Of a DNA stretch of 64,000 bases, positions 1-64,000 are shown one piece after another. Positions within the stretch are counted from its first letter, which is position 1. Every line of letters starts with the position of its first letter. The stretch is from assembly GCA_023105745.1 (NCBI GenBank), contig JALGQZ010000018.1, positions 23,272,132 to 23,336,131 of the forward strand, written 5' to 3'. A program made the position numbers and the translations under genes. The stretch is from Austropuccinia psidii. Lineage: Eukaryota; Basidiomycota; Pucciniomycetes; Pucciniales; Sphaerophragmiaceae. The notes under the pieces are model-generated. The model was not told where the DNA came from, did no database searches, and was given only the letters and a program-made list of their open reading frames with translations.

Positions 1-766
1 TCTCAGAAAAGACATTGCTAAACCAAAACTACATGTCTCACCAGCTGAAAAATCTCAACTATTACAGGTTCAAAAGATATAAATAGAGGTCTTCTCTCCC
101 TCATTTTTCCAAAAACAATGGACAAAGCTCCCACTATTGAGGATCACAACAGTTCATAAACTAGAAGGATATCTATAGTACTAGTTTTTTATTTGTGGAA
201 AGCTCAGTAGCTTAGTATTATTTAAGAATAGTAGTATAACCATAGTAAAAATCTCAGTATCCTTTCTCAGTAGCTTAGTAGTATAATCATATTAAAAAGC
301 TTAGTATTATTGAGAAGAAAGAAGTAGTGATATAAACATAGTATTAAAATAAATTGAAGAATTATTAGTATTATTGATATTAAAAAAAACTTTTTATTGG
401 TCTTATTAAAATGAAAATAAAATATTAGTCTTTAGTTTATTACAAATTATAGCGTTTCATCAGACTTTTGAATATGGGGTGACTGATGGGTCTTATTTTG
501 AGACTAATTATAAGTCTTCTCCAACTTTTAAAACCCCACATTTTCTTTTAATTTATTATTCTCCATAGGCTTACTATTCATTATCATTCAGAGGGGAAGC
601 TAATACACCTTAGCACCCATGTTTATTGGACAATTATGAAATGCAAAACATACTTACCAATAAATTCCCCCTCAAGGTACTGCCTTATTTCATCCCACAC
701 TGTAAAATTTTGTGTCTTGAAATTATCATTACTCTGTTCAAGCCTACCAAAACAATTTTGTTCTTA
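1..766. other. Left edge, unassigned A+T-rich DNA
   Basis: I recognise no gene. Positions about 203-312 hold imperfect direct repeats built on the words ctcagtagcttagta and aagcttagtattatt. The segment may be the left part of the Harbinger-like copy A that follows, but I could not align it to the left end of copy B at 56123-56600, so the left boundary of copy A is unknown. Confidence 0.4.
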
Positions 767-1057
767 GGCTGTGAAGCAAATGATAATGCTTGTTTGATGT
801 GGGAAAAGGAGAGGTGGCATGAAGAGAAAGTGGGGAATATTGAAATTCAATGCTTTGAAGAGGTAAAGCTACAAGGAAAATGGAGTTTTATGTGAAACAA
901 CACAAAATTGAACATGGATTTTAAAAAGAAAAGTGGAATGGGGAATTGGAGCTGAAGGAAAAGCAATTCCAGATTAATCTCACTATAGCATAATTGTCAT
1001 AAAGAAATCCAATATCTGAGCTTAAATTTATTCTGACATTGATTAATAAAAAATGAT
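767..1057 (+). pseudogene. Myb/SANT-like protein, last exon only (Harbinger copy A)
   Basis: This stretch parallels the last exon of the copy B gene at 57342-57631. Both carry the order W-x-[KR]-ERW-[HN]-EEKV, then a Q-x-FEEVKLQ block, then a K/E-rich coiled-coil-like tail. In copy A the frame is lost soon after EEVKLQ, with stops and small indels, and none of the upstream exons seen in copy B are recognisable. Proteins of this shape (N-terminal Myb/SANT-like domain, charged coiled-coil tail) are the usual second protein of PIF/Harbinger elements, thought to carry the transposase to DNA. This one cannot make that protein. Confidence 0.6.
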
Positions 1058-2488
1058 TTTTGATCATTATTTATTATTTATAAATGATTTAATTTTGATT
1101 TGGTAATTCATAGATATAGAATATTGATTTTTGAATGGTTCCAATGAATGATAAATGCAAGAATATATTGAGGTCATCATATCATTCAGTTTTTCATGAT
1201 GGTAAAGAATTTCCCATGGTTTATCCCATATTTCATTTGGATACTAAATAGTAATGAGTTTCAATTGTTTTTATGTTACCAGGTCACCAAAGTTTTCTTG
1301 TGAAAAGTTCCATTTCAAAGTTTAATTGAACGTTTTGGCTGATTATGATAAAGTTTTAACCACTTTTCATGTTGGGGGATTTCCGTTTTTGAGGTGAGTT
1401 TCTTCTAATTTGGTGGTATTTACAAATAAAAATTAATTTTAATTTCAGCTTTGGCACAAATCATAAATTCAAACATTCATTTGGACATTCTAATTCAGTT
1501 TATTTTGAAATTGGAATTTTGGATAATTTTCCACTAAAATCTTATTTGCAAAAGTTAATTTTATTTTATTTTTCAAATTCAAATTTGAATCTTCCCCTTA
1601 TTTCTATTTTTTTCTATAAAAAATAACCCCAATTAATCAAACTTCATTTTAACAAAGAAAACAAACTGGTATTTTTCTCTTTCAAATTCATCACTAAGCT
1701 TATTCTTAATAAAACTCCTCTCATTTTTCCTTTTTTTGAGAAATTCCAGTCAGGCCTTTTTTAGTTATTTCTGATAATTATTGAATAAAAAATAAACCAG
1801 TGAGTCTTTTGTATTATTTCTTTCTAACTTCCTTATTATTCAATCAGAAATCACCTCAACCATCTTCACCATCACCATCTATCACTCACCACCCATTAAT
1901 CCTTACTTCTAACCCCACCACCCATCCATTTAATCCTTTCAGGCATCACCAATCACCCCTTCATCATTATCTCCAATGCAACCACCCACCCAGAACCTCT
2001 CAATAATCACTCTGGGATATTCTAAAATGGAAACAATTCAATTTGCAATTCATTGAGAATGCATCCCAAATCAATCAGAACTCTTTTTAATAAATATCAA
2101 TGTCAATTACCCCAAAATTTCTTTGGATTGCCATCTGAAGCCTTCCGGGGTTTCTCTCCCCTGGCCATTCATTTATTTCATTTTATTTTTATATTTCATC
2201 ATCATCATCCATGATGATGATGAAAACAATATTGAATTATATTTTTATTATTAATTTTTTGATGATGGCTAATTGTTTTGTGTTCTTTTTAATATGAATA
2301 ATCCCTTTTTTTTAATGCTTCTTACTAACTTATTTCAATTTTAGGTTTGAATTTTAATATAGTGGTGGAGAATTCATAAGGATTTTACTTTCTCAATTTC
2401 ATTTCAAACCATTCACCTCCCTTCATTTTTAAAGGTTGAAAAGAAATCTTCTTCTCTCCCTCTCTCCCAAAACCAATCTGATTATTTC
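1058..2488. other. Spacer in Harbinger-like copy A, no gene seen
   Basis: A+T-rich DNA with long T runs, a His/Pro-rich open stretch near 1800-2006 caused by a cac/cat-rich tract, and a small catcatcatcatcc/ggatgatgatgatg inverted repeat near 2198-2222. It occupies the place where copy B has 3.5 kb of extra DNA (57632-61181). I see no equivalent of the host-like gene pieces of copy B here. Confidence 0.5.
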
Positions 2489-3744
2489 ATGGTTAAGACT
2501 AAAACAGATTTAGCACATCAACAGAATGATTTGAAAGATGATGAAGCACTTATTACTATTCTTGATGTCATTGTTAGGACTAAACCAAATATAAAACATC
2601 ATTAAGTTAATAATATAGATTCAAATCATAAGAGAAAACTCACCTGAATTCAAAGAGAACCTATTCATGTTTCAAAAAAATAACCTCACAACTTGGGAAT
2701 TCCAACAGACAATATAGAAATATCCCATCCATCTCAATTGATAGAAAACTGATGATTCCACATGGTTAATAATTCCATCAATAAAGACTCTTCCTAATCC
2801 CTATTCAATCATTGATAAAACCAAGAATCCTTTCTTTCCTGTTGTAATTTATGAAATCACCCCATTTTAAAATTCTTCTACCAACTCTCACATCTTAAAA
2901 AAGTTTATTTTTAATTTAACAAGCTTATCCAAAAATCAAAAATAAATGAAAACCAATAAAAATATCCTATGTGTAATGATTGAATTCATTGGATTTTTTC
3001 CAGGTTCTGATTCTGGAAGATTTGCAGGTGTGGAATACTTTTTACTTTTTATATTAATGATTACTAATTCATTTATAAATCATAGGTTTTTACTCCCAAA
3101 AACCTGGTTTGACACCTCATGGAATTGAAAAAAATAATCTTCAATGGAAACAACTTCAACAATATGAAGATTTCATTTACCCTATAATTTCTCATTCTTC
3201 TGAATTAGCTGAAAATGAAAATAAAGCATTAATGGAAGCTTCTAAATTATCAAATTTCAGTAACCTTAAATGGTTTTTGGCCAATAATAAATAAGAATGC
3301 AAATAATCTACAAATATCATTGTCACTAAAGATGTAGTTTTCAATAAGCCACATCAAGTTATCAATTATCTCAGTTCTTGGACTTATTGTATCTTTTCTT
3401 TCTTTTCCAAAAAGGATTTTTATCCACTTCTAACTTTATTCACTCCAACTGGACATTGATTTCACTTCCCTGAATTAAAAATGGAGATTGATTTTTCAAA
3501 AGAAAACCTGTAATAATGGAAATTCTATGGAAGAAATCATAAATAGTCCCTCATACATCAAAACCTCCTCTAGGAATTATTAATAATGAATAAATTACTC
3601 ATTTTGTATGTTATTTTCAAATCAATAACAAATTGTTTGATGTAGGTGAGAAATCTTTGAAAAATGACATCTAATGAAATCAAATCAAAAGTGTATGGTT
3701 ACTTGGAAAGAAATATGCAGGACCAAAAGAGAGCTAAAAATTAA
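2489..3744 (+). pseudogene. Tet-like 2OG-Fe(II) oxygenase-like gene, dead copy (copy A)
   Basis: This is a decayed paralogue of the gene at 61182-62446. The intron is at the same place: exon 1 ends at 3027 after a GSD-x-GR-x-AG motif, and exon 2 starts at 3086 with YSQKPGL (copy B has YSRKAGL). Exon 2 continues with W-x-QL-x-YEDFIY, NEN-x-ALMEAS and FNKPH. The family's presumed iron-binding H-x-D reads H-Q-V here (His 3352-3354, Val 3358-3360), so the active site would be dead even without the many stops and frameshifts. The block KMEIDFSK is still readable near 3479-3502. It lies between the Myb/SANT-like remnant and a convergent transposase, as in copy B. Confidence 0.6.
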
Positions 3745-3834
3745 AAATTGTAAATAGTTTCATTTTATCAATCACATCCCCTCTCCATTTTAGGCCTTGA
3801 AATTTATTAAATAAGTAAATAATCATGATAAAAT

Positions 3835-5052
3835 TCAGAATTGATTATCTTTCCATGCCAAAGTAATTGTCTCAACTTTAGCATGCATATTTACAATATC
3901 TTCCCCATTTCCCATTTTGTACAGATTTCCGATTTGTGGTGGATCATCATCTTCTTAAAAATCAAACCATTCATCTCCAATTTGTGCTAACATATCACAT
4001 AAAATTTTCAAAGAAATGACACAACAAAAAAAAGTATTTTATTTATTGATTATCCATCATTTTATTTTTCATTTCCCTGAGAAAAAAACACCTACCCTTA
4101 AAAATTCCAATTGCATTCTCAATTCTTACCCTTAATATTTCTAGGCAATAATTGAAAGAAAGGTTGTCTTAATTCTGTGCCACAGCTCCCTTATAATCTG
4201 GAACAACCCAAGGATAGATTGCATATGCTGAATTGGCAAGTAATTACTGATCCTTTTCATAAAACCCTTGAGGTTTTTTTTCTATTTTCATATGTTGATA
4301 TACATTTGAATCATAAAGTGACCCAGTACAACCCATATGTAGAGCAGTGAACCTTTTGTTTATATTTCAAACTAGTTGTATTGACATAGAATACCTTAAT
4401 TCTGATTAATCTGTGAGAATGATATAAGTATGTAAATCCAAAAAGTGTATCTCTTTTTACAATATAAATAGGCTTCACCATCATTTGGGGGTCATTTTGA
4501 TAAGGGTATGAGACTGCCATCAATAAATTCAATACACCCAGGGAATCCTGATGATATTAAATATAATAATGATTGTGTGGCGACACACAATCATTATTAT
4601 CTTGAACTTCATCAATTTTCTAATCATTTCTTTAGTGTACAACAAAATAGCCCCATGGCTAATTGCAAACAACATTCCAATTTTTCCTAAAGCTGACCCA
4701 TTTCCATTTGATCCTAACCTTGATGATGCCACAGCCAATTGTATGGCAGGATTACACTGTTTTTTTGTGATGAATTTTGAAAGGTTTTTTCTACCAATAT
4801 TTCAAATTAGTCATGTGTTGTGTGACAAAGTTGGAAAAACCTTTCATATGATAAGGTTTGTATATCATTTAATATATAAGTGTAATTTAAAGGATATATT
4901 TCACAAGAATTGATGTATCTTTGTTATTTTATCATAATTAATATGGTTATATCTCCCTGAATATCGGAGTCACTGTTGAAGTCAAAAGAATTCATGAACT
5001 ACAGTGATTTTGATGTCTGAAGCAAAGGTAACCTTTTGGATGCCTTTGGCAT
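3835..5052 (-). pseudogene. PIF/Harbinger DDE transposase, decayed (copy A)
   Basis: Read on the minus strand from an ATG at 5052 (MPKA start shared with copy B). Recognisable pieces in order are SRLGSNGNGSALGKIG (about 4670-4730), a GC-x-EFIDGSLIPL block with the first catalytic Asp (about 4510-4545), GSLYDSNVYQHM with the second Asp (about 4290-4330), and RVRIENAIGIFKGR with the catalytic Glu (about 4095-4140). This order and spacing fit DDE_Tnp_4 nucleases of the HARB1 type, which cut and paste the element. Frames are broken throughout. The gene converges on the oxygenase-like gene at 2489-3744, with about 90 bases between the two stop regions. Confidence 0.65.
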
Positions 5053-5278
5053 TGAAAATTATGAAAATTTCTATATAAGATGTAATTTGGAAAAAAAAAT
5101 CTTTAAGAAATTAACAGGGTTATTTCATTTGATATAAGGCAATTTTCATGCAATTATACATTCACTTACTGAGGTGTATGTCAAAAAAATGATGCTTTTA
5201 GCAAAGCCAAAGGTAGGATTTTGAGGCAAAAACCCTGATTTTTTGTACCTCAAAAACCACACCTTGTGAGTTGTGGAA

Positions 5279-5317
5279 TTCCCCAAATACCAAAAACTTA
5301 ATTTGGTATTTGGGGAA
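5279..5317. repeat. Subterminal hairpin of copy A
   Basis: Perfect 14-base inverted repeat: ttccccaaatacca (5279-5292) pairs with 5304-5317 across an 11-base loop. It sits 31 bases inside the right tip of the element and could bind transposase or form a cruciform. The function is not known. Confidence 0.75.
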
Positions 5318-5331
5318 AAACACAAGATTTT

Positions 5332-5348
5332 GTAACTTTGACACCCCC
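5332..5348. repeat. Right terminal inverted repeat of copy A
   Basis: Reads gtaactttgacaccccc. Its reverse complement matches the left tip of copy B (56123-56139) at 16 of 17 positions. This is the main evidence that the two loci are the same DNA transposon family. Confidence 0.65.
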
Positions 5349-45171: not shown

Positions 45172-45275
45172 TTTTTTTTAGCATACCCCCAAGTTATTTG
45201 GGGGGGGGTATAATCCACTGTCCAACCTCTCTACATATACTTTTCTAAGTATTTAAAGCACACAATTCAAACTTG

Positions 45276-46908: not shown

Positions 46909-46913
46909 GATTT
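46909..46913. repeat. Target-site duplication GATTT, left of solo LTR
   Basis: The bases gattt precede the LTR start at 46914 and recur at 48897-48901 right after its end. Removing the LTR plus one copy restores the Gypsy reading frame (WALPNPPDNPAYVP). Confidence 0.85.
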
Positions 46914-48896: not shown

Positions 48897-48901
48897 GATT
48901 T
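48897..48901. repeat. Target-site duplication GATTT, right of solo LTR
   Basis: Second copy of the five-base duplication made when the LTR element entered Gypsy pol. See 46909-46913. Confidence 0.85.
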
Positions 48902-49434: not shown

Positions 49435-50425
49435 AATCTCTAAGGTGTTGCCTGTAATAACTAAAAACCCCCAAAAAGGACATCATTTCTTTGTTGTTCT
49501 GGGGCATTTGTTTCAGTAAAACTGCAGCCACTTTGTTTTTGTCAACACCAAGGCTCAGTCCTGAGACTACATGTCCTAGAGCTCTTAACTCATGAAACCC
49601 AAAATTACATTTCTTCAGCAATATTTTCATGTTCACTTCAAGTATTTTTCTAAGTACTAATGAAAGTCTCTCTAAATGTAATTGCCAAGTTTCTGAACAA
49701 ATGATAATGTCATCAATATAAATTATTAACCATCCTTCTGACGATTCTTGTGGGAAGATGGTATTCATCATTCTCTGATAATGAGAGTGTGCATTTTCAA
49801 TACCAAAAGGCATTCTCAAATACTCATAAATTCCACAATGAGCAATTATTCTCAAGTATTTCATAGCATGAGGTGTCAAAACATTCTGATGAAAGCCTTT
49901 CAGAGCATCCATGGAAGTAATGAATATTGCTTTGGATAATTGAGTCAAAGTCTCATGAATTCTTGGGAATAGATACCTGTCTGGAATAGTATAGGTATTT
50001 AGTGCTCTAAAATCACCAACCATCCTTGAATTATCATTATGCCAAGTAATGATTACTGGAGTTGTGACTTCTACCTCCTCATTGTGTCCAACCTTTCTAA
50101 GAACTCCCAGTTTAATTAGTTCATTAATATGAGTTTCTAATGCTTCTCTAGCCCTAGGGCTAGCTGCGTAAGCTGCTCTTCTTAATAGTGGTGGATAAGG
50201 CCTTTCCACATTAAGCATAATGTCCACTTCATGGCCTTTTATAGCTCCAAGTGGTTCATTATCTGAAGCAAAGGCTTCTCTGTATTGAAATAAAATTTCA
50301 ATTAGCTCTTCCTTCATTTCTAGTGTTAATTCAGGACTAATTTGTGCTTCAATTAATTGACCTGACACAAATTTTTCCTTATCAACATTTTTTACTTGTT
50401 TAATGACAGTAATTTCTCTTTTTTT
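49379..50425 (-). pseudogene. Gypsy reverse transcriptase
   Basis: Minus strand. In order: VERPYPPLLRRAAYAASPRAR, the finger/palm strand VTTPVIITWHNDNSRMVGDFRALN, FITSMDALKGFHQN (first catalytic Asp), EYLRMPFGIENAHSHYQRMMN, and the polymerase signature YIDDI (about 49705-49720), then CNFGFHELRALGHVVSG. It copies the element's RNA into DNA. The domain itself is open for about 330 codons. It is cut off from the Gag-protease frame by an indel in the A run near 50424-50431 and from RNase H by one near 49380. Confidence 0.85.
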
Positions 50426-53106
50426 AGAGGAAAAGCAAATTTATGTCTTTTATTTTCCCCTATAGTGAAATACCTGTCTATATGATTATTAATATCAATA
50501 CCATACATATTGAGATAATAATTCCCAAGTATAAAGTGTTGTGACGTACAATTATTCATGACAACAATTTCAACTTTCAATCTTATAGTTCCTGCAGGAT
50601 GAGGAAATATTATTGCTGCTTCAAATATACCCAAGGGGTGCATATTTTGGCTAGCACTTCTGAATGTTATACCTTCAATTGGAATTAATTTGTCTTGCCA
50701 ATTCATACAAACTTTTTCAAGATAATATTTTCCAACACAAGTGCAAAAAGCACCTGAGTCAAGGTGTATCTTGGATTCTGTGTTGTTTATCACAATATTA
50801 GTGATACAAGATGAACCAGCTGTATAGCCTTTACCTCTGGCAGGTTTGGCTTTCTGCATTTTAGCATCTTTCACATGTATGAGATCCATAAATTCATCAC
50901 TATACTGTGGTAAATGAGTGTGTACCTCAGTGAATTTAAAATAAACATTAATGTTTTCTATACTAAGCTCTTCTGGTACTTCCTCTTCTTCTGAAGGCTC
51001 AGAATCACTTTCATGTAAAGATACATCAGTTGTTTCTTTTGTGTCTTCCACTTTTTCAACATTTATCTCATTGATTCTTGTCTTTTTTGGGCAAGTGTTT
51101 GCTAAATGAGATGTACTCTCACATTTGTGAAATTTCAAAGGAAGTCTGTCTTGTGGCTTATTTGGATTTGAAATTGGTTTCCCATTAGTCTCATTGTCTA
51201 TTGGGGATCTGGACCAATTTCTTCCAATTTTTGTTCTAGTAGTGATGTCCTCCATAGCATTGATATAATCTTCTGTAGAGCAAGGCTCAATAAATCTGCT
51301 TCTTATAGCATGCTCAAGGTCACCACCACACTTTCTTAATATCCTTTTATGTACCATTGTTTCAGACATATCAGGATGAAGGGCAGTTAATCTGTCCTTC
51401 TGTTTAAGAAACCAAGACATGGGACTGTCCCTCTCAATATTAAAACTGGCTTCTTTAAAAGAATTTTCCTTTCTAAATCTCCAGGAATCATTTGCCAATT
51501 TGGAAAGAATTTGTTCTTTCCACCAAGGCCAAGAATGTTAATCATGGTCTTGTCGCATTTTGTAATACCATTTCTTTGCTGATCTGGTAAATAATGAGTG
51601 TAATCTGGCACTTATGTATTCATCTGGTATGTTAAAGTCTTCTTTAAACATATCAATTTTTTTCATAAATTCCATATGATTATATTCTCCTTCACCATTG
51701 AAGGTTGGCCATTCCTCTAATTTTGGAATGTCTTTGAAATTGCAAGCAGTTTCCACATCATTACTTAAAATTGTATGATGTAAATCATTATTAAAGTTAA
51801 GCACATTTCTGTCAAGAATTGGTGTGGATTGCCTTGGCAATTCATTTTTTAGTGATATATTATTAATACTTGATTGAATGTCTTCTTTCAGTTCAAGTCT
51901 TGCTTTATCACTTTTTTCCAATTGTTCTTGGAAAAGAGCTGCATTGTGATCAGTTGAATTTTCCAAGTTTTGAACTTGTAATTTCAATTCTCTTAACTGT
52001 CCAGTTATAAAAGAAATTGAAATTTCATCTGGTTGATTGAGAAAAGTAACTTTAGACTCAATTCTTGCACAAATTTGCATCAAAGACACAATATTGTCCT
52101 TATTAACATTTTCAAGTCCAATAATGGTCTTTTGTTGGTCTTTCACTTGTAATATCTCATTACCCAAATTTTGTTGGATATACTCAAATGTTTTAAACTT
52201 TGCCATAATTTCTTTATTACAAGATTCAAATTGAGTTAAAAGCTTAACAAGATCTATCTCTTTGGGAAAGATTGGTTCAATCTTTCCTCCTCCTTGTTTT
52301 TGAATTCCATCAGAGTTCTTGCCATATTGAACACATTGTCCATGGCTGTCTTTTCTTTCTTTGGGAAAGATTGGTTCAATATTTCCTCCTCCTTGGTTTT
52401 GAATTCCATCAGAGCTCTTGCCATATTGAACACATTTTCCATGGCTGTCTTTTCTTTCTTTGGGATTCTGTAATTCTGTGGGTAAGGCTTTTCATTTTTC
52501 TTGCCCTTCTGATTGGTCTTTGGGGCTTGCTTGGGCTTGCTTGGCACTTGTTGACGCAGAATTTTGCTGGTGGATGCTTGGGGAGCTTCCACTGGGCTGT
52601 TTTCCTTGACTTGGGCCAACTTCTTCTTCTGATCCTCTGATAACAGGCTTTGGTTTTTCAACCAAGCTTTTATATGTTGGACTTGTCCTTTGCAAGACAT
52701 TGGTGTCCAACCCTTCAGAAGATCTTCTGTCTTTTCTGGCCCCATGAACTTCTTCACTTGAAGATAAGAGTTCATTGTGCCTATCCAAAGACTTGGGAGA
52801 AGTTCCCACTCTTGCTGTTTTGCGGCCATAAACCAGTTCTTGTACTGAGACTGGTAAATCTCCACTGCTGCCTGTTGGAAATGATTCAGGTGTAACAGAA
52901 ATAGCAGTTATGTCAGCTTCTGGACTCTCAATAAGAGGTTCAAAGGTGCTGGCTAACATTTGGGAACTGGTGGAAGTTCTGGCATCCTCCATTTGTGCCT
53001 CTCCTCTGGGCTGACATTCTTGTCTTTTTGATTTGTGGCTGGAATGTCCTGGTTCAAATCCATTTGATTGGATGGAGTAATTACTTCCACTTCTAGTAGG
53101 ATTCAT
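50392..53106 (-). pseudogene. Gypsy Gag plus protease, one frame with two internal stops
   Basis: A single minus-strand frame of 905 codons from ATG 53106 (MNPTRSGSNYS) to a stop at 50392, interrupted only near 52492 and 51538. The order is a Ser/Pro-rich N-terminus, an in-frame 33-residue tandem duplication, a coiled-coil-like part (IESKVTFLNQ...LRELKLQVQNLE), the Gag core (WPTFNGEGEYNHMEFMKKIDMFKEDF; W-x-x-WF-x-KQKDRLTALHPD), a zinc knuckle with its first Cys changed to Phe (F-x2-C-x4-H-x4-C, about 51100-51145), an acidic linker, and an aspartic protease with LDSGAFCTCVG (about 50735-50770) and FILGN. Gag packages the RNA and the protease cuts the polyprotein. Confidence 0.85.
52261..52458 (-). 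repeat. 99-base in-frame tandem duplication in Gag
   Basis: Two units, 52261-52359 and 52360-52458, each starting tttgggaaagattggttcaa on the plus strand, with a few substitutions. The first bases of a third unit follow at 52459. The period is exactly 33 codons, so the Gag frame is kept (each unit contains a DSHG-x-CVQYGK-x-SDGIQ-x-QGGG stretch). Confidence 0.9.
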
Positions 53107-53107
53107 T

Positions 53108-53274
53108 TCACGTCAATTTTAAGAAAAAATAGACTAAGAATGGATTGAATTCACCTGCTGGACCTTTAAAGGGTTCTTTGGTTATCAAACCCCTTGGTGC
53201 TGGGCTGGTTTGAATTTCAATACTAGACTCTGAGGCTTCAGAGTCTGAAGAGCTGTCTCTAATTGATGACACTA
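53108..53274 (-). other. Candidate short leader exon upstream of Gag
   Basis: Minus strand, opening after a ttctctag acceptor-like site near 53274. It encodes SSIRDSSSDSEASESSIEIQ, then TSPAPRGLITKEPFKGPAGEFNP, and stops just before the Gag ATG. Acidic/Ser-rich start, no known domain. It could be a spliced 5' coding exon of Gag (a gtgaat donor follows GPA) or a short upstream open frame. Confidence 0.4.
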
Positions 53275-53805
53275 GAGAAAAAAAAAAATATAAGTTATCT
53301 TATCAAACAATAAAAATGACTTATAAACTCAACTTATTGAATAAAGTTGTTTTAATGTAATTTATGGCAAATTATGTCAAAAATAAAGAAAAGTGTCTAA
53401 GATTAAAAAAAAATATTTTTAGCAAAGATTTTTAATTTTTTTAATTTCTTATTTGATTTTTTATTTTCTTTAAAGAAATAATAATTATGCAATTAACAAG
53501 TTTATTAATCAAAATTGTATTATTATTCACTTTATACTAGAATAACTCAAAGAATGAATTTCAAGTCTGTGATGTGAACAAGCCACTAGTTAGATTCCAA
53601 GTCACTCAATAGTATATTGTTTCAAACAATATTCTTAAGAAAAAATAACTTTATTGATATTATAAAGATTATTTATAAGGGATAAATCCCAAAAAAGCCA
53701 ATATTAAGATAAATATGGCAATTTTCTGTCAAAAAATAGTAAAATAAGGTCTAGAATATGATTTATGTCCCAAAAATTGGTTAAAATCACAGCCAGGCCC
53801 CCAAA
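53275..53805 (-). other. 5' leader of the Gypsy element
   Basis: Untranslated region between 5' LTR and Gag, A+T-rich. Directly next to the LTR (element sense) it reads tttgggggcctggctgtgat, where the primer-binding site should lie (TGGGGGCCTGGC). I could not match this with confidence to a tRNA 3' end. Confidence 0.5.
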
Positions 53806-55972
53806 TGTAAGGTTTGTCTATAAAACTCTTGATAATAGTAGCAATATCAAGAGTACTATGACTGTCCTCAGTAGAAATATATAATATAAAAAAATATTAT
53901 AACCACAAATTTAAATATAATTATTAGAATAATTATATAAAAAAAATAAATTTAATTATTATTATAAAATGTAATAATAAAAAAAATATAATAATTATAA
54001 TAAATTATAATTATTCTATTATTGTTATAGTCACTGACAGTTATAGCAATAAGAAGTGTAAAGCTCTTAATGAGACAATTACACATGGAAAATATGGATA
54101 TTAACCACTTATAAATAATATAAATATTATCTATAAAAGAATTGAAACACACACTGTGCAGAAATAATTCTTATAGAATAAAATTCTATATAAAAAAACT
54201 AATACTAGATAAAAAAGATATAGAACTTTAAAGAAAACTTACTTAGAATATTTATTTAATACAATAAGTCAAACAACAACAGTTATTATATTAAATAATA
54301 ATTATAAGTTAAAAACACACCAAAAATCAATATTTTTAAAGATAAAACAACTTTTTATAATAAAAACTATGATTAAAGAGTTTTTAAGAGGAATTTGTGG
54401 ATTTTGAAAGATATTTAAGACAATAATTTTATATAATAAAATGTATTATTGGTGATTACAACAATAATCTGAATTCTATGATTTCAATTCTTTAATTTTA
54501 ATTAATAAAGAATAAAATAACTTAAGAGTTACTTTAATAATAAAATTTTATATTTAATAAAACTTTACCTGTTTGAATTTCTAATATGATTGGATTGATA
54601 ATGAATGATGGACAAAAACAGTGATGAAAAGACTCTTTTTATGTCTTCAGAGAAGCTCTCATGATTCATAATGAATATAGAGGGCGTGCTCAGGTCAAAA
54701 CTGAAAAAACATGCTTCAAAATAAAGTTCCTAACTTAAGGTAACTTATTTTTAATTCCAATTTAAAGTTAACAGGGTTATTCTTAACACCATGTAGCTTC
54801 AATCCTCATTTAGACTAATTATTTTAAGCTTTTAATATAAATAAACTTATTCATATTAAAGTTCATCACATGAAAAACTTAAAAATAGAGTTTCAAGCAG
54901 AAATCTCTTAAACTCAATTTTTAATTAATTTTTAAAGAAATTATAATTTTCTTTGAGCTTTAATTAAAAGAGTAAATTTCCAGGCTAAATACCCACGAAA
55001 TTTATTTATAAAAGATACTCAAAATTTAACTTATATACAGATAATATTGAATTGTAATCTGTGTGAAATTTTCAAGCAAATCCATTAACAATTGGAATTT
55101 TAATGAATTTTTGAAGTTATTGCTATTTTTCCACATAAAATAGCAATACACACCATACCTTAAGTTTTGTTAAGGTTTTAATGCTTGTAACCTTAAAGGT
55201 TTAAGCTTATTTAAGCTTTGAAAGTTCTTAAAACGTTAAATTCAAGCCTGCGTATTGGGATTTACCCTTTGGCAACTTGAAATTCCTGTCTAAATTAGGA
55301 TAAAACCAGTTTAAACTTTAATATTGGATCAAAGTCTAATTTTGAAGTTTAAATCAGGTTTAAAATCCTCCAATACAGGTGGACAACCTTAATTGAATCC
55401 TTGCAGATCCAAAAAGTTGGGTACCCCAGCTCTATTTGGCCTTTTTCCTTTGTCCCACCTTTCTGCGTGGATTTTGCCCTTTTATTTATTTAAAGCCATA
55501 CTATGGCCTTAAACCCTTTTAAATTGAGCTCACACAGGATTTACATTCTGTATGGCAAATCCTTAGCCAATTCAGTAAATATACACAACACCTCAATTTT
55601 AACTAAAATTTTGGTAAGTTTGCATAAAACTTATGCAACTTTAAATTTAAGCTTATTTAAGCTTAAATTTAACAATTTTAAAAAAATGTTAAAAAATTTA
55701 CATTAGTACTGTGAGATTCTTAAATATTCCAATAACATAAGAAATAAGTGTTTTTGGGTATAACACCTTATGGATGTACCCTAGGTTATTTTTGGTGTAG
55801 AATCCAAAAATGACATAATGTTTATAACTTTGTCTATCCAAAAAAAAGTTATACTTATTTTTTGTTATTGTTTATTTTAAATTCAATGAAAAGTCTGTTG
55901 AAGACAAATTTAACTGTGTATAAAGTTATTTGTGGTCTTATGGGTATGTTATACATACCTCACAGGCTCACA
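53806..55972 (-). repeat. 5' LTR of the Gypsy element, full length (2167 bases)
   Basis: On the plus strand it starts TGTAAGGTTTGTC and ends GGCTCACA, followed by the GAAAT duplication. In element sense it begins TGTGAGCC and ends CCTTACA. It should hold the element's promoter and poly(A) signal, but I cannot place either. The plus-strand open frame at 55503-55706 inside it has no motif. Confidence 0.85.
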
Positions 55973-55977: not shown

Positions 55978-56122
55978 AATCAAGTAATTAATTATATATT
56001 TGTGTTTATGATGTAGCTATTTGTTACATTTAATAAGAAAAATCATAGTAATATTCATTAATAGTCATATCATCAAAAGCTTAATGAAAAATCTTAAAAT
56101 AGTGTTCCTTATACTTTTATTA

Positions 56123-56280
56123 GGGGGTGTCAAAGTCACCAAATCCCGCCTTAAAATAACATGGGATTTGGAACCCAAATCCAAACACTAAATCCCAGGC
56201 TTTTTATGTGTAAATCCCATGGCACTTTAACTGAGTCCCCTGGTATTTTGACCAAATCCCATGCATCTGGGATTTGAGTT
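56123..56280. repeat. Left terminal repeat and subterminal aaatccc motif cluster
   Basis: The tip is followed by six occurrences of aaatccc or its complement gggattt in about 140 bases, on both strands. Clusters of short subterminal words are typical transposase or Myb-protein binding sites of cut-and-paste elements. The same word appears at the right side (about 63985). Confidence 0.65.
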
Positions 56281-56524
56281 TGAAATCTAACCCAAATGAG
56301 TGCGCACAATTCATACCTGTACAAAATATTCTCCCACACTCCATTTCGGACAATCTGACCAAACAGCTTACAGTCCATTTATAATTCATCCATATAATAA
56401 TTCCTTGTTCCAAAGAAAGACACATCAAGTCAGATCTGAAGATCACCTCTGGCCTGCCACATCCATCAGGTCACTTAATACATACAGATTATTTAACCAT
56501 AATTCATTGGCTTTCAGTCAAATC

Positions 56525-56618
56525 CAATTTTGAGTCATGTTTTGGTACTAGTGGTTCAACATCTATTGGAAGACCTCCCTCATCAAAGCAGAATGGCTTT
56601 CAGCTCATGGCCATAGAG
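56525..56618 (+). pseudogene. Candidate upstream exon of the Myb/SANT-like gene, disconnected
   Basis: Open frame SNFESCFGTSGSTSIGRPPS, then SKQNGFQLMAIE, ending at a gtaaac donor-like site. I cannot join it in frame to the next exon: the acceptor at 56653 leads either to an early stop or to a frame with a TGA just before W-Q-TYKKKY. It probably encodes the N-terminus of the Myb/SANT-like protein, now broken. Confidence 0.35.
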
Positions 56619-56699
56619 GTAAACAAAAATTAACAAAATTTCCTAAACCTTAGCTCAAGCAGCATCCAAGATTGATGGCAAACATATAAAAAGAAGTAT

Positions 56700-57631
56700 A
56701 TGGCAGCCAAAAAATTTGAAAATTTAACTGAGGCTGTACTAACAGAAGAAGATGAAAGTAAAGGAATAAAATCAATGAGTGAGAAGCTTGAAAGTACGTG
56801 TCCTTGCTATGCTGAAATGGATTTGCTGTTTGGCCACAAGCCCAATGTCACTCCCATTGCGAGTTATGATTTGCAATACAAAGATGGGTTAAATGGTGAT
56901 GATGATGATGTTTTGCTTTATAAGGTAAGTTATCATCTCTTCCTCTTTTTACCTGTGATAATTAAATCTCATTTACCTTTTAAAGGAGAATAATTGCTTG
57001 GATTCACCTCACAATCTGGATCCTTTGCTTAATAATGATGATAACATGGTTCCAGAGGAAAACCTTCAAGATGAATTGGTAAGTACATTTAGGAGCAATA
57101 TTTATTCACTCCAATCTCGCTTATCTCTCCTTTGAACAGCAAAGTAAATCCATAACACATTCAACACAAAAGCATAATCAAGAAATGACACCCAGCTTGA
57201 ATGAGAAGAGTGGCTCTAGTAAAAGGTTGCTGGATATGTTTGCATCTACTTATGCAAATTTTCTTGAATCACAGAAGAAAGGTATGACTTGCAGTTAAAG
57301 TTACTCTGATAAATCCTACTGACAAAATTCTTGATTATTAGCCCGTGAAACCAGTGAGAATGCACACTTGGAGTGGGACAGGGAGAGGTGGAATGAAGAG
57401 AAAGTGAGCAACATGGAAAAGCAATGGTTTGAAGAAGTCAAGTTACAAAAGCAAATGGCGTTTGATGAGAAGCAACATGCCAAGAAAAATGAATTTGAAA
57501 AAGAAAAGTGGAATCGGGAATGTGAACTTAAGGAAAAGCAATGCCAGATGGATCTCACTATAGCAGCATTGTCATCAAGCAGGCCAATTGTGGAGCTGGA
57601 AAGAATTCTGACGTTGATAGATAAGAAATAA
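56700..57631 (+). CDS. Myb/SANT-like DNA-binding protein of the element (C-terminal 249 residues intact)
   Basis: Four exons splice cleanly: 56700-56924, 56986-57078, 57140-57281, 57342-57631 (donors GTAAGT, GTAAGT, GTATGA), 250 codons including the stop. Just before and after the ATG the frame reads TYKKKYMAAKKFENLTEAVL, then KGIKSMSEKLESTCPCYAEMD and LLFGHKPNV, the pattern of Myb/SANT-like proteins common in rust fungi. The middle is acidic and Asp/Asn-rich. The last exon is a W/E/K/Q-rich coiled-coil-like segment (WDRERWNEEKVSNMEKQWFEE). In Harbinger elements such a protein binds the element's DNA and helps the transposase into the nucleus. A TGA near 56676, upstream of the ATG in the same frame, suggests that the complete SANT domain is no longer made, so this is either an N-terminally shortened protein or a pseudogene. 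Confidence 0.6.
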
Positions 57632-58244
57632 CATATTACATATATGTCATGTGATCATTTGACACATGGTGATTTGTCAAAAACAAGCAATGCTTATTTG
57701 AAATTGATCTTATGTTTTGAAACGGGATCTCAATTTATTACAAAATTGAAAATTTGTGCCAGCCTGGAATCATGATGTTATGTGCCAAAGATCAATGTCT
57801 GTGCTTGAACCAATTGAATTTGAAGGTGTCCTTGAAATTTCAATTTTGTGGTGAATTTTTGCCAAAGAAGAGTGGATTGTGCCTTTTCTTTTTCTTCCTT
57901 TATTTTTGTCATTTTCTTTTAATTTATTTTAATTGAAGATCCCTTTACCTTCCTTTTTCTTTATTTTTGATGATTTTGGTATATCATATTTTATTTTTTG
58001 GGACTTTGCCTTATTTTGATTGTTTTTAATATATTCTTATTATCCTTTGTGTTGATCTATTTTATTTTGATTTTTATTTTGTTTGATATAATTTTGTTTC
58101 ATGTGTTTTCAATTTTTTCATTTTGTTTTTGGGTTTTGAGTTTGGTTTCAATGGTCTCAATTTATTATAATCTACTTTTATATGTTTAAGCTTTTCTGTC
58201 TTTTCTTTGGGTTGGTTTAATTTTCTTTAAATTTTTTAAATTTG
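57632..58244. other. Spacer with T-rich tract, no gene
   Basis: Between the Myb/SANT-like gene and a tandem repeat. The open frames at 57754-57936 and 57998-58189 are hydrophobic readings of T-rich DNA without motifs. Confidence 0.45.
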
Positions 58245-58870
58245 ATTTTCTTTTTAGTCAAAGAACCATCCCTTTTTATATTTTTTTCTTTGGATTGATG
58301 TGAGTATTTTGAATGCTATGGTTTTTTTCAACAGGATTCAAGGCAATTTATCTTGAATTATTCACTTTCTAGCCGGATCAAAATATTTTCTAAAATTTTT
58401 GGTTAGATCATTGTCAGTTGTATGAATTCTATTTTTTTTGCAACAGAATTCAATCCTGTCAATTTATGAATCCATTTTCTTTTTAGTCGATTAACCACCC
58501 TTTTTAAAAGTTTTTTTTTGGATTGAGGAAAGTTTTTTCAATTCTATCAGTTTTTTTCAGCATGATTAAATGCCACTTATTTCTGAATCACTCTTTTGTA
58601 AATATTATCATCTTTGATCAAGGTGAGTATTTCAAATCATTTTTTTAAAAGGAATTAATGCAACTTATTTTTGATTGAATTTTCTTTTTAGTTGATTAGA
58701 AATCTTTTTGTTTTTTGTTTTTTGGGATCGAGGTGAGTATTTTTACTTATATTTGTTTGTTCAATTGTATGCCATTTAACTAATCTTTCGATGAACTATA
58801 TTTGTAGTTCATTACTCATTAATTTTAAATATTTTTAATTGGAACGAGGTGAGTCTTTTAATTATTTTAT
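58245..58870. repeat. Degenerate tandem repeat with splice-site-like words
   Basis: At least three diverged units begin with ttttctttttagt (about 58245, 58475, 58678), so the period is roughly 200-230 bases. Within them recur a gat(c/t)gaggtgagtatttt word (about 58293, 58615, 58727, 58844), which looks like a 5' splice site, and ttttttcaacag-gatt words (about 58328, 58438), which look like 3' splice sites. It may come from repeated duplication of a small exon-intron unit of the gene piece that follows. Confidence 0.5.
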
Positions 58871-58879
58871 CTAGTTTCA

Positions 58880-60477
58880 ACACCACCAAGTCAGACCCGA
58901 GTATTATGCTTTCGTGCGTGACTGGAAAGCAGACAAGCTTGGCAACTGTGCGTTTAGGTATTCAGCCCAAAACTTTGCAGGGGTCATGGCTCGAAATGCA
59001 AAGTTGACCATTTTCTATGGCACCTATACTCAAGATGAATATTTCAAACAATTAAAAGAACATCGAAATATCAAAGATTTAATCCCTTTGTTTGTAACCA
59101 CTGCTACTGGTGTCTTAAAGAAATGTTTAGAAGGTGACAAATCAAAAATTCATTTAAACACTCAAGTAGGAGTTTTCTTCACCATCTTTAGAGATAGTTT
59201 TGCAATTGTTCTTCTGTTAATTCATCAGCACAAGCAATGACCCAATAAAAGGGTTTGTTCCTTAATTCATTCTTTATTTCAATCTTTAATTTCCAATTAA
59301 TCTCCGTTCATTTATAATTTTTCTCTCTTACTCTAGATGATTTTCGTGTTGATTTACAAATTAATAAAGGTTTAAGATGTATGCATTTTAAAAAAAACTC
59401 AAAATCAATTTCAAATCTAAATCAATTTTTTAACTTTAATCTAGATATTGAAAATAAATGAGACAAATCACTTCATGTAGAAAGACAAGTTCATAGAAAT
59501 CCTACTAGATTAGGTGATGGTCATGTTCATTTATCAATTTATTTTATTGATCCATCAACTATCTTAAGGCCAACCTCATCTACTCATTCACATGTTGAAG
59601 CAAATCATAAACCTCATTTTCAAATCGAGCACATGTCCTTAATTGATTTAAATCAATTAAAACATTTAAATAAATGTACAAACGTCTTACCAGTATGTTT
59701 TCTTTCTTAAAATCAAATTAAGACTCTCATCAAAAACTTTTTTTAATTGATTTCTTTCTCTTATCAAGTGGATATTGGGTCATTGCTCGTGCTGTTTGAT
59801 ACCTTGCTATGTCGTATATATGAGGCAATTCAACTGGTTATAGAATTGAAGCCTCCAGAAGATATACCAAACGCTTTGAGCTGTTTAATTTGAATTTATG
59901 ATTCCAAGCCATTAAAATTAGTTACAGATTTGCTTCAACGACACAAACGATTTGAAGAAGCTGTTGCTGAGTAATACGACAACCTATACTCACTGAAATG
60001 GGACAGTATCTTGGCATCTGAACAACCAAAAAAAGTTATCTTATTTTTAGAGTTGATAGCATGGATCAAATCGTGTTCCAATCATATCAATAAAAATTTT
60101 AAGCAGCCCCTTCTCAATTTAATAGATTCGGTGTCCACTGCCACCTCCTCCTATCATAACCGCGAAAGATGGTACAGTAAATATCGGGCTGGTTAACCAA
60201 GAGGCTGAATCATATTATAATGATGCTGATGGACTACCTCTCTATCATGCCTTGACAGAAATTAAAAAAATGAGATGTGCTATTCAAAGTAGGTGACATT
60301 TTTTATCTATAGAAATTTTGTTTAGATTATTTACATTAACTGAATAGCCATTCAATTCTCCTTTAGAATGCCTTTGGTTATGCCAACCAATTAATGCATC
60401 CAACCTTATGTACAAAACCCGCTAGACGCAGGGGAAACCAAAATGAGCGGATGGGTTCAATCTACAATAAAAGCTGA
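58880..60477 (+). pseudogene. Host-like gene pieces, including a septin-like segment
   Basis: Three islands on the plus strand. (1) 58880-59238 encodes about 118 residues (FVRDWKADKLGNCAFRYSAQNF onward) of a protein I do not recognise. (2) 59336-59692, ending at a GTATGT donor, contains VERQVHRNPTRLGDGHVHLSIYFIDPS and then LNQLKHLNKCTNVLP; this resembles the septin G-domain stretch where R-x-N-x-x-x-D-x-RVH-x-x-LYFI precedes NV-x-PV, but it has an extra His/Ser-rich insert and a stop. (3) 59769-60477 encodes KRFEEAVAE, an ELIAWIKSC stretch, then in another frame GLVNQEAESYYNDADGLPLY, and after a small intron a basic tail ending at 60477; no family recognised. Stops and frame changes show decay. 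CpGs are retained, unlike in the flanking element genes. Either two host genes are mixed or one unusual protein is meant. Confidence 0.4.
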
Positions 60478-61181
60478 CAAAGTGCAAAAAATTTCTCACT
60501 CCCATCTTTCTTACTTCTCAGTCCTTTGCTAATTGTGGGACCCACTTTGCTACAGTTTATTTAACTCTTGTTAACCTTTTTTTGTATGTCCCATCGCAGT
60601 TTACACCAGAAGGCAACAATTTCCATGGTACTTCATTCAGAAATCTTATGGATTCTTGTTGATCAGCAAGAATCCATAAGAATCCATAAGACGGAAATGG
60701 CCCAATAAGTATGCAAATCTCTACAATCTTACCTACAACACCAAAAATACCAACCAGAGAATTCCAGTGCATCTGAATTTTCTTTTTCAATTTTTGTTTT
60801 GTTCTTATGTTCTTAACTTTTGATCATTATCATGATGCTCATCACTCACCTTTTTATTTTCTGAAAATCATCACTGATCTTTTTGGATTTTTTCAAATTC
60901 AAAGATGATTAATGCTGATCATCTTTTTTTCTTATTTTGGTTTTTTTAAATCATCATGCTGACTGACTTATGTTTTTTTTATTAAACTCATATGAAACTA
61001 ATTTGATTCAATTATCATGGTTATCATTTTTTCTATTGTTTCGTAATTGTTTTTGATCATTTCTTAATCTTATAAGGATATTTTTTGCAAGGTCATTCTC
61101 TTTCACCCCCCTTCCATCATCATTAAAATTAAAAAAAGTGCTCCCCCTGTCTCTCACTCTTTAAATTATTCTGATGATGTT
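60478..61181. other. Spacer before the oxygenase gene
   Basis: T-rich, with repeated gatcat/atgatc words (about 60824-60960) and a strong hairpin at 60645-60680. A pyrimidine-rich tract ending near 61160 leads into the oxygenase gene, as at 2440-2470 in copy A, so this last part belongs to the element. Confidence 0.45.
60645..60680. repeat. Perfect hairpin, 14-base arms
   Basis: cttatggattcttg (60645-60658) and its exact complement (60667-60680) with an 8-base loop, followed by a direct repeat of aatccataag at 60681-60690. It could be a terminator-like or MITE end structure. There is no clear link to the gene that stops at 60477. Confidence 0.75.
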
Positions 61182-62446
61182 ATGGTTAGGACTAAACCAG
61201 AGTCAGCACATCATAAGAATCATTTGAATGATAATGAAACTATTATTCCTCCTATTTATGTCATGGTTATGACTAAACCAAAGATAGCACATCATGAAGA
61301 TAATAATAACCAAACCAATCATAAAAGAAAACTCACCCGATACCAAAGACAACATATCCATGATTCAAAACAAATCATGTCTCAACTTGGCCATTCAAAA
61401 ACAGCATATAAGCACTTTTCAACCATTTCAATTGACAAGAAATCAGCCAATGCATAATGGTTAAAACTTCCATCAATCAATACTTTACCCTGCCCTTATG
61501 TACTAATTGATAAAACACACAAGCCATTTTTACCTGTCTGCATTTATGAAATCACCCCTTTTGATGTTTCCTCAGGCCACTCTGAAACACTAAAAGACCT
61601 TATCATTACATTGATGTCCTTATCTCAAAATCAACACGAAATTAAAACTAATAAACAAGACCTAGGTGGAATTATGAAAGGTATTGGCTTTTGTCCTGGT
61701 TCTGATGCTGGCAAATCAGCAGGTGTGTGATATTTTTTACTTATTATTTTAATAAATATAATTACTAATTAATTCCAAAACCATCAGGTGTTTACTCCAG
61801 AAAGGCTGGTTTATCTCCTCTTCAAATTGAAATGGATAATATGCAATGGACCAAACTTCAAAAATATGATGAATTCATTTACTCAAGAATCTCCCATTTT
61901 TCAAAATTAGCTGCAAATGAAAACCAGTAATTAATGGAAGCAGCCAGATTACCAAATTTCAGCCAGCTCAAATGGACTTCTGCCACTCCAAAGGACAAAT
62001 TCAAATCTTTTTCCAATGTCATTGTCACTCAAGATGGATTTTTCAATAAGCCCCACCAAGATTTAAATGATCTCAATGCCTGGACTTATGGTATTTTTTA
62101 TTTTGTATCTAAAGAAGATTTTCATCCCCTTCCAACTGTCTTCACTCCCTCTGGACATGGCTTGCACTTCGCCAAATTGAAAATGGAGATTGATTTCTCC
62201 AAAAAACCTGGCATTATGGAGCTCTTTTGGAAAACATCAACAATGGTTCATCATACAACAAAACCTTCTCCAGCAATTATCAATCATGACAAAATAACTC
62301 ATTTTGGATGTTCTTTTCAAATAAATCATAAATTATTTAATGTAGGTCACAAATTCTTGAAAATGTCACCCACTGAAATCAAATCAAAAGTCCATGGGTA
62401 CTTTGAAAGAAATGTGCAGGACCAAAAACGTGCTAAAAAGTTGTAA
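61182..62446 (+). pseudogene. Tet-like 2OG-Fe(II) oxygenase-like protein carried by the element (two in-frame stops)
   Basis: Exons 61182-61722 and 61788-62446 with a 65-base intron (GTGTGT...CATCAG, branch-like ACTAAT), 400 codons including the stop. The N-terminal third is basic and His/Asn/Lys-rich (KPESAHHKNH, NHKRKLTRYQRQHIHD). The C-terminal domain reads VIVTQDGFFNKPHQDLNDLNA, WTYGIFYFVSKEDFHPLPTVF, TPSGHGLHF, KMEIDFSKKPGIMELFWKTS, VHHTTKPSP and THFGCSFQIN. This matches the layout of the Tet-like 2OG-Fe(II) oxygenase domain annotated in many rust and other basidiomycete proteins: H-x-D iron ligands (His 270, Asp 272 at 62054-62062), a distal His (335 or 336), then a late basic residue, usually Arg, here His. 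TET/JBP enzymes oxidise methylated bases in DNA. TAA codons at 61455-61457 and 61931-61933 interrupt an otherwise open frame. Confidence 0.6.
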
Positions 62447-62563
62447 TTGGAAATAGTTTTATTTACCCAATATTAATTGTAAATACTTCTATTTTCCCAA
62501 TAACATCCCCACTCCATTGTATGTCATTAAACTAGGAACATAAATTAATGGTCCTGCAGAAAT

Positions 62564-63817
62564 TTACAATTGACTCTCTTTCCATGCCACAGTAATTGGT
62601 TTAATTTTTTCATGCATATTTACCACATCTTCCCCATTTCCATTATTGAATGGATTCTCTGCAAGTGGTTGATCATCATCCTCATATAAATCAAACCATT
62701 ACTCACCAATTTGTGCCAACATATTATGTATTATTGTGCACAAAACAGCCCAACTGACAAAGTATTCAATCTCATGATAATCCCTCATTTAATTACACAT
62801 TTCCCTTAGAGAAAACCACTGCCCCTTCAAAATGCCAATTGCATGCTCAATTCAGACCCTTGATTTTGCTAGACATTAATGGAAAGAACGGTTGTCTTCA
62901 TTCTGTGCTGCAACTCCCTTATATGCTGGAACAACCCAAGGAGAACTTGCATATGCTTAATCAGCCAGTATGTACTAACTTTTTAATGAAATTCTTGGGG
63001 TTTTTGTGCAATTTTCATATGTTGATATACATTTGAATCATGAAGTGACCCAGTACAACCAAAATGTAAAGCAGTGAACTGTTTGTTTATGTTGCAAACC
63101 AGTTGTATTTACATAGAATACCTTAATTTTAAACAATCAGTAAAAATTAAATAAAGGATAATGATTAAAAAGCCTACCCCTTTTTATGATCAAAATAGGC
63201 TTCACCATCATTGGGGGGACACTGTGATAATGGTATGAGACTCCCATCAATAAACCCAATGCACCCAGGGAAGCCTTCTGCCTGCATTACTTGAGACATC
63301 TCCCTTTGTTTTTCTGTTGTTCTATTGTTGGCCACACAATCACTTTGTGCTTCAACTTCATTAATATCTGGATAACTCTTTTTGTGTACAACACAATAGC
63401 CCCATGGCCAATTCCAAATAAAATTCCTATTTTTCCCAAAGAAGCCCCATTTCCATTTGATCCTAGCCTTGATAGTGAAACAGCCAATTGGATGGCAGGA
63501 TTGCGTTGTTTGTTTTGTGATGAGTTTTGAAAGGTTTTATAATCTTGAATTTTTGCAACCAATTTTTCAAATGATTCATGTGTGGTCCTACATAGCTGTC
63601 AAAACCTTTCAGATGATAATGTTTGTAAATCATTCATTGTATACATTTAATGTGATGGATATCTTCCACGGGGATTAATTTATCTTTGTGATGTTATCAT
63701 ATCTAATACAGTTATATCTTCCTGGATATCAGAATCACTATCAGAGCTGAGAGCATCAATGAACTGCAGTGAGTTTAAGGTCTGAAGTAAAGGTAGCTTT
63801 TGCAATGCCTTTGGCAT
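62564..63817 (-). pseudogene. PIF/Harbinger DDE transposase (DDE_Tnp_4/HARB1 type), broken
   Basis: Minus strand from ATG 63817 (MPKALQKLPLLQTLNSLQF) to a TAA at 62564-62566. Order: an acidic SSDSDSDIQED stretch, ERF-x-QLCRTTHESFEKLVAKIQ, AIQLAVSLSRLGSNGNGASL and GKIGILFGIGHGA (helix-turn-helix-like), GFPGCIGFIDGSLIPL with the first Asp (about 63240-63275), an intron near 63120-63190, HFGCTGSLHDSNVYQHMKIA with the second Asp (about 63010-63060), SRV-stop-IEHAIGILKGQ with the Glu (about 62820-62865), and the tail DLYEDDDQPLAENPFNNGNGEDV. The D-D-E residues are all still encoded, but stops (near 63695, 63650, 63610, 62850), a frameshift near 63320 and others prevent a full protein. It should cut and paste the element at TWA sites. 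It ends 118 bases from the stop of the oxygenase gene, tail to tail. Confidence 0.75.
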
Positions 63818-64000
63818 GGTAAATGAAGAAAATATTTATAGAAAATGCAGTTTGAAATCAAATACTTTAATAAATGACAAGTTTATTCAGATTTTATTCA
63901 AGAGAAGGGGATTTTTATGAAATTTAACATGCCCTTACTGAGTTTTATGTTGTAAAAATGTCCCTTTAAGTAAAGCTAAAGGTGGGATTTGGTACCAAAA
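63818..64000. other. Right part of copy B running off the window
   Basis: Non-coding region upstream of the transposase start, parallel to 5053-5240 of copy A (shared word tgcctttggcat before and aaagc-aaaggt-ggattt near the end). The terminal repeat itself is outside the window. Confidence 0.5.

What the first reader, a model, noticed from the sequence alone, without database searches (positions are those of the whole stretch)
61182..63817. A Tet-like 2OG-Fe(II) oxygenase gene travels inside a PIF/Harbinger-type transposon
Seen: a gene with H-x-D...H iron-ligand pattern and the block order of rust Tet-like oxygenases lies tail to tail with a DDE_Tnp_4 transposase and downstream of a Myb/SANT-like gene, within one terminal-repeat family. 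Known: TET/JBP enzymes oxidise 5-methylcytosine or thymine, and fungal TET/JBP genes have been linked to Kyakuja-Dileera-Zisupton transposons. A stable link to PIF/Harbinger is not one I know. Inference: the element may carry its own base oxidase to relieve methylation silencing, a three-gene self-activating transposon.
Basis: partly seen in the sequence, partly recalled or inferred. Interest (0 to 1): 0.82.

Follow-up and report, generated by a model that had tools for sequence, protein, structure and literature searches.

The report
Rust-fungus transposon carrying a TET-like oxygenase
A jumping gene in what looks like the myrtle rust fungus carries, besides its transposase, a TET-like enzyme gene that may strip silencing marks from DNA; this pairing was published in 2025, but this family also carries a piece of one of the fungus's own genes.

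Summary
The observation largely holds. Window 61931-62443 scores as Pfam 2OG-FeII_Oxy_6 ("Tet-like", E 1.4e-17). It lies tail to tail with a DDE_Tnp_4 transposase, identified on relatives (E 1.9e-21), inside an 8,014-bp element, 56123 to 64136 (136 bp past the window end), with matching inverted ends and TA on both sides. The window copy is decayed: Tet and transposase frames carry stop codons. The "Myb/SANT-like" third gene is there, but its relatives stay below Pfam's cut-off. A second, more decayed copy lies at the window's left edge.

The link itself is not new: Kojima 2025 (PMC12730594) reports TET+ Harbinger families with TA duplications and a third protein without Myb/SANT in six rusts, Austropuccinia psidii included.

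Added here: the 30 closest copies read all carry Tet with at least part of the transposase. Tet is as constrained as the transposase (dN/dS 0.43 and 0.42; non-coding control 0.77-1.13). Some copies carry host-gene DNA between the third gene and Tet, including a septin piece traced to its apparent parent gene. Demethylation remains inference; the element is itself CpG-depleted.

The parts
56121..56122 (.). TA on the left flank (target-site duplication; partner TA at 64137-64138, outside the window)
56123..64000 (.). element copy 1; true right end is 64136 (8,014 bp)
56123..56158 (+). left terminal inverted repeat (33 of 37 aligned columns match the right end; first 14 bases identical)
56382..57631 (+). 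third gene: diverged helical N-terminal domain plus long C-terminal coiled coil (predicted on a relative); readable exons 56676-56924, 56986-57078, 57140-57281, 57342-57631; at least one in-frame stop upstream of these
58880..60700 (+). variable slot between the third gene and Tet
58880..59200 (+). CoA-transferase (SCOT)-like piece, weak match; DNA relatives at 9 further places besides the 5 with the whole slot
59257..59717 (+). septin-derived piece, 84% identical to an apparent host septin gene at C5:20581387-20581863
61182..62446 (+). Tet-like 2OG-Fe(II) oxygenase gene with one intron; domain scored on 61931-62443; frame broken by stops
62570..63817 (-). DDE_Tnp_4 (PIF/Harbinger-type) transposase, frame broken by stops; family assigned on relatives
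1..5348 (.). copy 2 of the element (about 7,840 bp in all, starting about 2,490 bp left of the window); badly decayed
713..1054 (+). copy 2: third-gene piece
2416..5221 (.). copy 2: Tet (+) and transposase (-), 73.7% identical to 61110-63990

Best explanation
The feature is a decayed copy of a high-copy DNA transposon of the TET+ Harbinger (PHISTA) kind, in a rust fungus that is most likely Austropuccinia psidii. Family members encode a DDE_Tnp_4 transposase, a third protein with a coiled coil (probable DNA-binding partner, inferred) and a Tet-like 2OG-Fe(II) oxygenase. The transposase moves the element by cut and paste at TA sites (from ends and flanks; activity not tested). The oxygenase most likely oxidises 5-methylcytosine at or near the element, easing silencing so that the element can be transcribed or cut out (inference). 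In addition, family members have taken up host DNA, apparently introns included, into a slot between the third gene and the Tet gene, and the content of that slot differs between copies.
For: Tet domain E 1.4e-17 here, 1.4e-22 and 8.4e-28 in copies L041 and L054. Transposase 1.9e-21 in L049. TA on both sides in 3 of the 6 copies looked at (copy 1; L063 and L066). 30 of 30 copies align in one piece from Tet into the transposase, 26 of 30 to within 200 bp of the transposase's 5' end. dN/dS over all pairs: Tet exon 0.427 (30 copies), transposase exon 0.424 (26), a non-coding stretch of the element read in three frames 0.77-1.13 (23). Ligands in 31 copies: H 29, D 25, distal H 30. In A. psidii, transposons are hypermethylated at CpG, young ones most (PMC12774611, passages), so there is a mark to remove. 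Kojima 2025 gives the same architecture.
Against: No catalytic activity is shown for this Tet type; Kojima also says the function is not validated. The structure prediction of the Tet protein failed (mean pLDDT 43.6) and no solved structure matched by sequence beyond chance, so the fold rests on the Pfam profile alone. The element is CpG-depleted (observed/expected 0.235 in copy 1, 0.217 in the window between the two copies, 0.105 in a Gypsy stretch), so it was probably methylated and deaminated all the same. Of the other copies looked at, copy 2 has TA on the left only, and in L064 and L065 the end pattern that I searched for was not found, although the element alignment reaches its last base there. 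The window copy is broken and cannot act itself.
Confidence: 0.8

Rival explanations
1. The Tet gene is only passenger DNA, picked up like the septin piece and copied along without use.
For: The element has demonstrably picked up host DNA, and most sampled copies of the Tet exon are broken: 19 of 31 have a stop or an indel relative to the window.
Against: Tet is kept in the more diverged copy 2, while the slot content changes; its dN/dS equals that of the transposase and lies below the non-coding control. The other copies were found with Tet as the query, so its presence in them proves nothing.
Confidence: 0.1
2. The oxygenase acts on another substrate or does another job (for example 5mC to another adduct, thymine, N6-methyladenine or RNA), helping the transposase directly and not countering silencing.
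For: For PU-type enzymes Kojima lists CMD1, which has a different reaction, among the nearest solved structures and leaves other substrates open.
Against: CcTET, NgTET and human TET2, the other nearest relatives he names, oxidise 5mC; 5mC marks transposons in this fungus.
Confidence: 0.25
3. Two separate elements lie side by side, a Tet-bearing one inserted into or next to a Harbinger.
For: Insertions into copies occur here (copy 2 carries about 2 kb extra; L064 lacks the left part in the stretch fetched).
Against: The same Tet-transposase stretch recurs in 30 of 30 copies; two copies at other chromosomal sites, L063 and L066, have the same ends with their own TA flanks.
Confidence: 0.02

Closest known systems
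TET+ Harbinger families / PHISTA (Kojima 2025, Biology 14:1741, PMC12730594)
   Same: Harbinger-type transposase, PU-type Tet/JBP gene, a third protein without a detectable Myb/SANT domain, TA duplications, rust fungi including A. psidii.
   Different: The main text has no occurrence of 'septin', 'fragment' or 'transduplication'. Whether this exact family is among his fifteen could not be checked (Table S1 not readable here). He gives the name PHISTA to the lineage of the Puccinia families; whether he counts the A. psidii ones in it was not clear from the text.
KDZ (Kyakuja-Dileera-Zisupton) elements with TET/JBP genes (Iyer et al. 2014; known here only as cited in PMC12730594)
   Same: Transposon with its own Tet/JBP gene in fungi.
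   Different: Different transposase superfamily; 8-bp duplications for the Dileera example.
Nuwa branch of PIF/Harbinger (as described in PMC12730594)
   Same: Transposase plus a partner protein.
   Different: 3-bp duplications and a true Myb/SANT protein.
Pack-TYPE transposons of plants (PMC8903248, passages); hAT elements with histone H3 in fungi (PMC6710886, passages)
   Same: Host coding DNA carried between transposon ends.
   Different: Pack-TYPE elements are non-autonomous; the fungal H3 copies lack introns (transcript capture), whereas the septin piece here aligns across what reads as an intron.

Membership tests
Tet-like 2OG-Fe(II) oxygenase (PF20515) | Score above Pfam cut-off | tested here: met
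   64.8 bits against 27
Tet-like 2OG-Fe(II) oxygenase (PF20515) | H-x-D ... H iron ligands | tested here: met
   present in the window copy; H 29, D 25, distal H 30 of 31 copies; which H is the distal ligand is assigned by the recalled TET2 motif
Tet-like 2OG-Fe(II) oxygenase (PF20515) | Double-stranded beta-helix fold | tested here: inconclusive
   model mean pLDDT 43.6; no PDB sequence match beyond chance
TET/JBP dioxygenase | Oxidises 5mC or thymine in DNA | not testable with these tools
   needs an assay
PIF/Harbinger superfamily (PHIS) | DDE_Tnp_4 transposase between inverted terminal repeats | tested here: met
   colinear copies L049, L050; ends. The window's own broken pieces reach no transposase family
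Canonical Harbinger | 3-bp target duplication | tested here: not met
   TA, no 3-bp repeat, in copy 1, L063, L066; related lineages make 0, 2 or 3 bp (PMC12730594), so this speaks against the canonical branch only
TET+ Harbinger / PHISTA | TA duplication | tested here: met
   TA on both sides in 3 of 6 copies; copy 2 left side only; L064 and L065 end pattern not found
TET+ Harbinger / PHISTA | Third protein without Myb/SANT | tested here: met
   4 of 22 relatives match Myb_DNA-bind_4 at E <= 1, best 0.014; the two scores seen, 16.3 and 13.6 bits, are below the cut-off of 27
TET+ Harbinger / PHISTA | Transposase groups with the PHISTA branch | not tested
   reference sequences not at hand
Nuwa | Partner gene with Myb/SANT domain | tested here: inconclusive
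   sub-threshold hits only; predicted helices 28-41, 66-72, 79-109 fit a three-helix domain but residues 44-86 have pLDDT below 50

The most novel reading that the evidence does not exclude
This is an autonomous transposon lineage that combines its own anti-silencing oxygenase with DNA-level capture of host-gene pieces (introns kept) at one interior slot, whose content is replaced from copy lineage to copy lineage: a self-protected gene shuttle.
Probability: 0.35. Interest if true: 0.6.

Novelty: new member of a known kind. Interest (0 to 1): 0.35.

Why it matters
It gives independent, quantitative support to the idea that a Tet-like enzyme works for the transposon: the gene is about as constrained as the transposase in the same copies. 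It also shows uptake of host-gene DNA by the same element family, so an element with a possible demethylase also spreads a host exon in a gigabase rust genome. The main claim was already in print.

Tried and rejected
Structure prediction of the Tet protein (P0086 with 28 rows) gave pLDDT 43.6 and of the third protein (P0130, 22 rows) 60.7 with a poor N-terminal part; neither was taken to a fold search. PDB sequence searches gave no Tet relative and nothing for the third protein. The septin-like piece, taken from the element alone, stays below Pfam's cut-off (E 0.0024 here; 0.0084 in L063) and matches no PDB sequence; the claim rests on the DNA match to the host gene. The SCOT-like piece is also below the cut-off (17.5 and 18.9 against 23 bits), with a PDB match at E 7.4e-4; its parent gene was not found because the searches did not complete. 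In the slots of L065 and L066 some ORFs looked to my eye like host coding DNA (one like an aspartic protease), but Pfam found nothing for the 7 ORFs tested and a PDB search of one found nothing, so no claim is made for them. The 'copies with stop' column counts gap codons as stops and is not used. A plasmid search was uninformative.

Full report
WHERE IT IS. The window lies at C18:23272132-23336131 of a 1.015-Gb, 84-contig assembly. Of 85 database proteins found with its Tet piece, 84 are named Austropuccinia psidii MF-1 and one has no name; the best is 88% identical. A. psidii, the myrtle rust fungus, has a gigabase-sized genome (title of PMC8063080, search listing). The species is inferred from these, not proven.

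THE OBSERVATION. The stretch 61931-62443 scores as 2OG-FeII_Oxy_6, Tet-like (PF20515), at E 1.4e-17, 64.8 bits against a cut-off of 27; the three open pieces upstream in the gene score no such family. The window's gene is interrupted by at least two in-frame stops. On the other strand, tail to tail, lies a transposase whose window pieces are too broken to reach a transposase family. The same stretch in colinear copies scores as DDE_Tnp_4 at 1.9e-21 (L049) and 1.2e-14 (L050).

THE ELEMENT. Reading 136 bases past the window shows the right end. Copy 1 runs from 56123 to 64136, 8,014 bp, with ends matching in 33 of 37 aligned columns and TA on both sides. A second copy of about 7,840 bp spans the left window edge and ends at 5348; it keeps the same gene order at about 74% identity but is badly decayed, has TA on its left flank and not on its right. 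Copies L063 (8,016 bp, 92.9% identical over its whole length) and L066 have the same ends and TA flanks. In L064 and L065 the end pattern used was not found, though the alignment with copy 1 reaches its last base in both.

THIRD GENE. It lies left of the slot in 5 of 6 copies examined (copy 1, copy 2, where about 2 kb of other DNA splits it, L063, L065, L066); in L064 only the right part of the element lies in the 9.9 kb fetched. Its relatives (105 hits) mostly have no functional name; four are called 'Myb/SANT-like' and a few 'No apical meristem-associated'. Pfam's Myb_DNA-bind_4 matches 4 of 22 relatives at E <= 1, best 0.014, below the cut-off. AlphaFold gave helices at 28-41, 66-72 and 79-109, with residues 44-86 below pLDDT 50, and a long C-terminal helix typical of a coiled coil. 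This agrees with Kojima's statement that the third proteins contain no Myb/SANT domain and leaves a diverged version open.

LINKAGE. A DNA search with the Tet stretch scored 40 of 1,889 first-look candidates, at 88-100% identity; 30 were cut out as loci, the window's own included. In 30 of 30 one alignment with copy 1 runs from Tet into the transposase, in 26 of 30 to within 200 bp of its 5' end; the other 4 stop earlier. These are the closest copies by construction. A PF20515 profile search scored 150 of 7,498 candidates; its 30 best loci fall in two other Tet families that share no detectable DNA with copy 1, and 5 ORFs scanned from one member of each, with 1.5 kb of flank held, gave no transposase. 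So the Tet-like gene as such is not tied to Harbinger, but this subfamily is.

SELECTION. Over all pairs of copies, dN/dS is 0.427 for the Tet exon (30 copies), 0.424 for a transposase exon (26) and 0.483 for a second Tet exon (30); a non-coding stretch of the same element read in three frames gives 0.79, 1.13 and 0.77 (23). The 12 unbroken Tet exons give 0.34, the 19 broken ones, copy 2 included, 0.47. Pairs are not independent and no test of significance was made. Both genes were thus under similar constraint while the family multiplied, which argues against Tet as a mere passenger.

SLOT CONTENT. Between the third gene and Tet, copies differ. Copy 1's stretch 58880-60700 occurs nearly whole at 5 places, its own included, one of them split (40 of 67 candidates scored). 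The part 59257-59717 was found only there and, at 84%, at C5:20581387-20581863. That place reads as a septin gene: its first open frame scores Septin at 1.4e-9, and the frame that matches the element at 7e-6, just under the cut-off (26.0 against 26.2 bits). In the element itself the piece scores only 0.0024. The DNA alignment covers 485 columns (E 6e-149), including what reads as an intron between the septin exons, which suggests capture of DNA and not of a transcript. The distal part of that gene is masked. A neighbouring piece, 58880-59200, resembles CoA transferase weakly and occurs at 9 further places. L065 and L066 carry other DNA over most of this slot, whose origin was not settled.

MECHANISM. 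Shown: gene content, ends, TA flanks, multiplication of the family, constraint. Inferred: transposition at TA by the encoded transposase; oxidation of 5mC by the Tet-like enzyme; easing of silencing. PMC12774611 (passages) reports CpG methylation enriched on transposons of A. psidii, highest in young families, so a target mark exists. Against a strong protective effect, copy 1's CpG observed/expected is 0.235, close to the window between the copies (0.217) and above a Gypsy stretch (0.105); the part of copy 2 inside the window is at 0.062. Age confounds this comparison.

NOVELTY. Kojima 2025 (PMC12730594; abstract, sections 3.1.4 and 3.4, part 1 of 2 of the discussion, and passages) reports fifteen TET+ Harbinger families with TA duplications in six rusts, A. 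psidii included, and the same anti-silencing idea. Host-gene pieces in such elements were not found in print in the listings of two searches nor by a word search of the Kojima main text; the library holds open-licence papers only, and supplements were not readable.

Noticed in passing
L001 (C5:15831313-15831924 region), also L002, L003, L016: A different Tet-like gene family (17 of the 30 best PF20515 loci) has a Cys/Met-metabolism PLP-enzyme piece (PF01053, E 1.8e-33 in L001) about 0.9 kb from the Tet gene in 4 of 17 loci over full length and in 3 more in part.
   Followed up: partly
window 44608-54385: Two 92.5%-identical direct repeats (44608-45173, 53803-54385) enclose gag-pol-like ORFs on the minus strand: an LTR retrotransposon, probably Gypsy (label recalled).
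   Followed up: no
window 33731-35383: Two ORFs that look like a MULE/FAR1-type transposase (recalled, not scanned).
   Followed up: no
window 24963-26183: A 406-aa ORF with high CpG observed/expected (0.80 against 0.22 in the window between the element copies): probably an ordinary host gene.
   Followed up: no
C5:12178115-12179103 and C5:12208651-12210331: The Tet part and the slot part of what seems one element copy lie about 30 kb apart, as if split by later insertions.
   Followed up: no
copy 1 and L063 flanks: The bases flanking both ends read TATTA on both sides, longer than the TA of the published kind; in L066 only TA repeats. Possibly chance in AT-rich DNA.
   Followed up: partly
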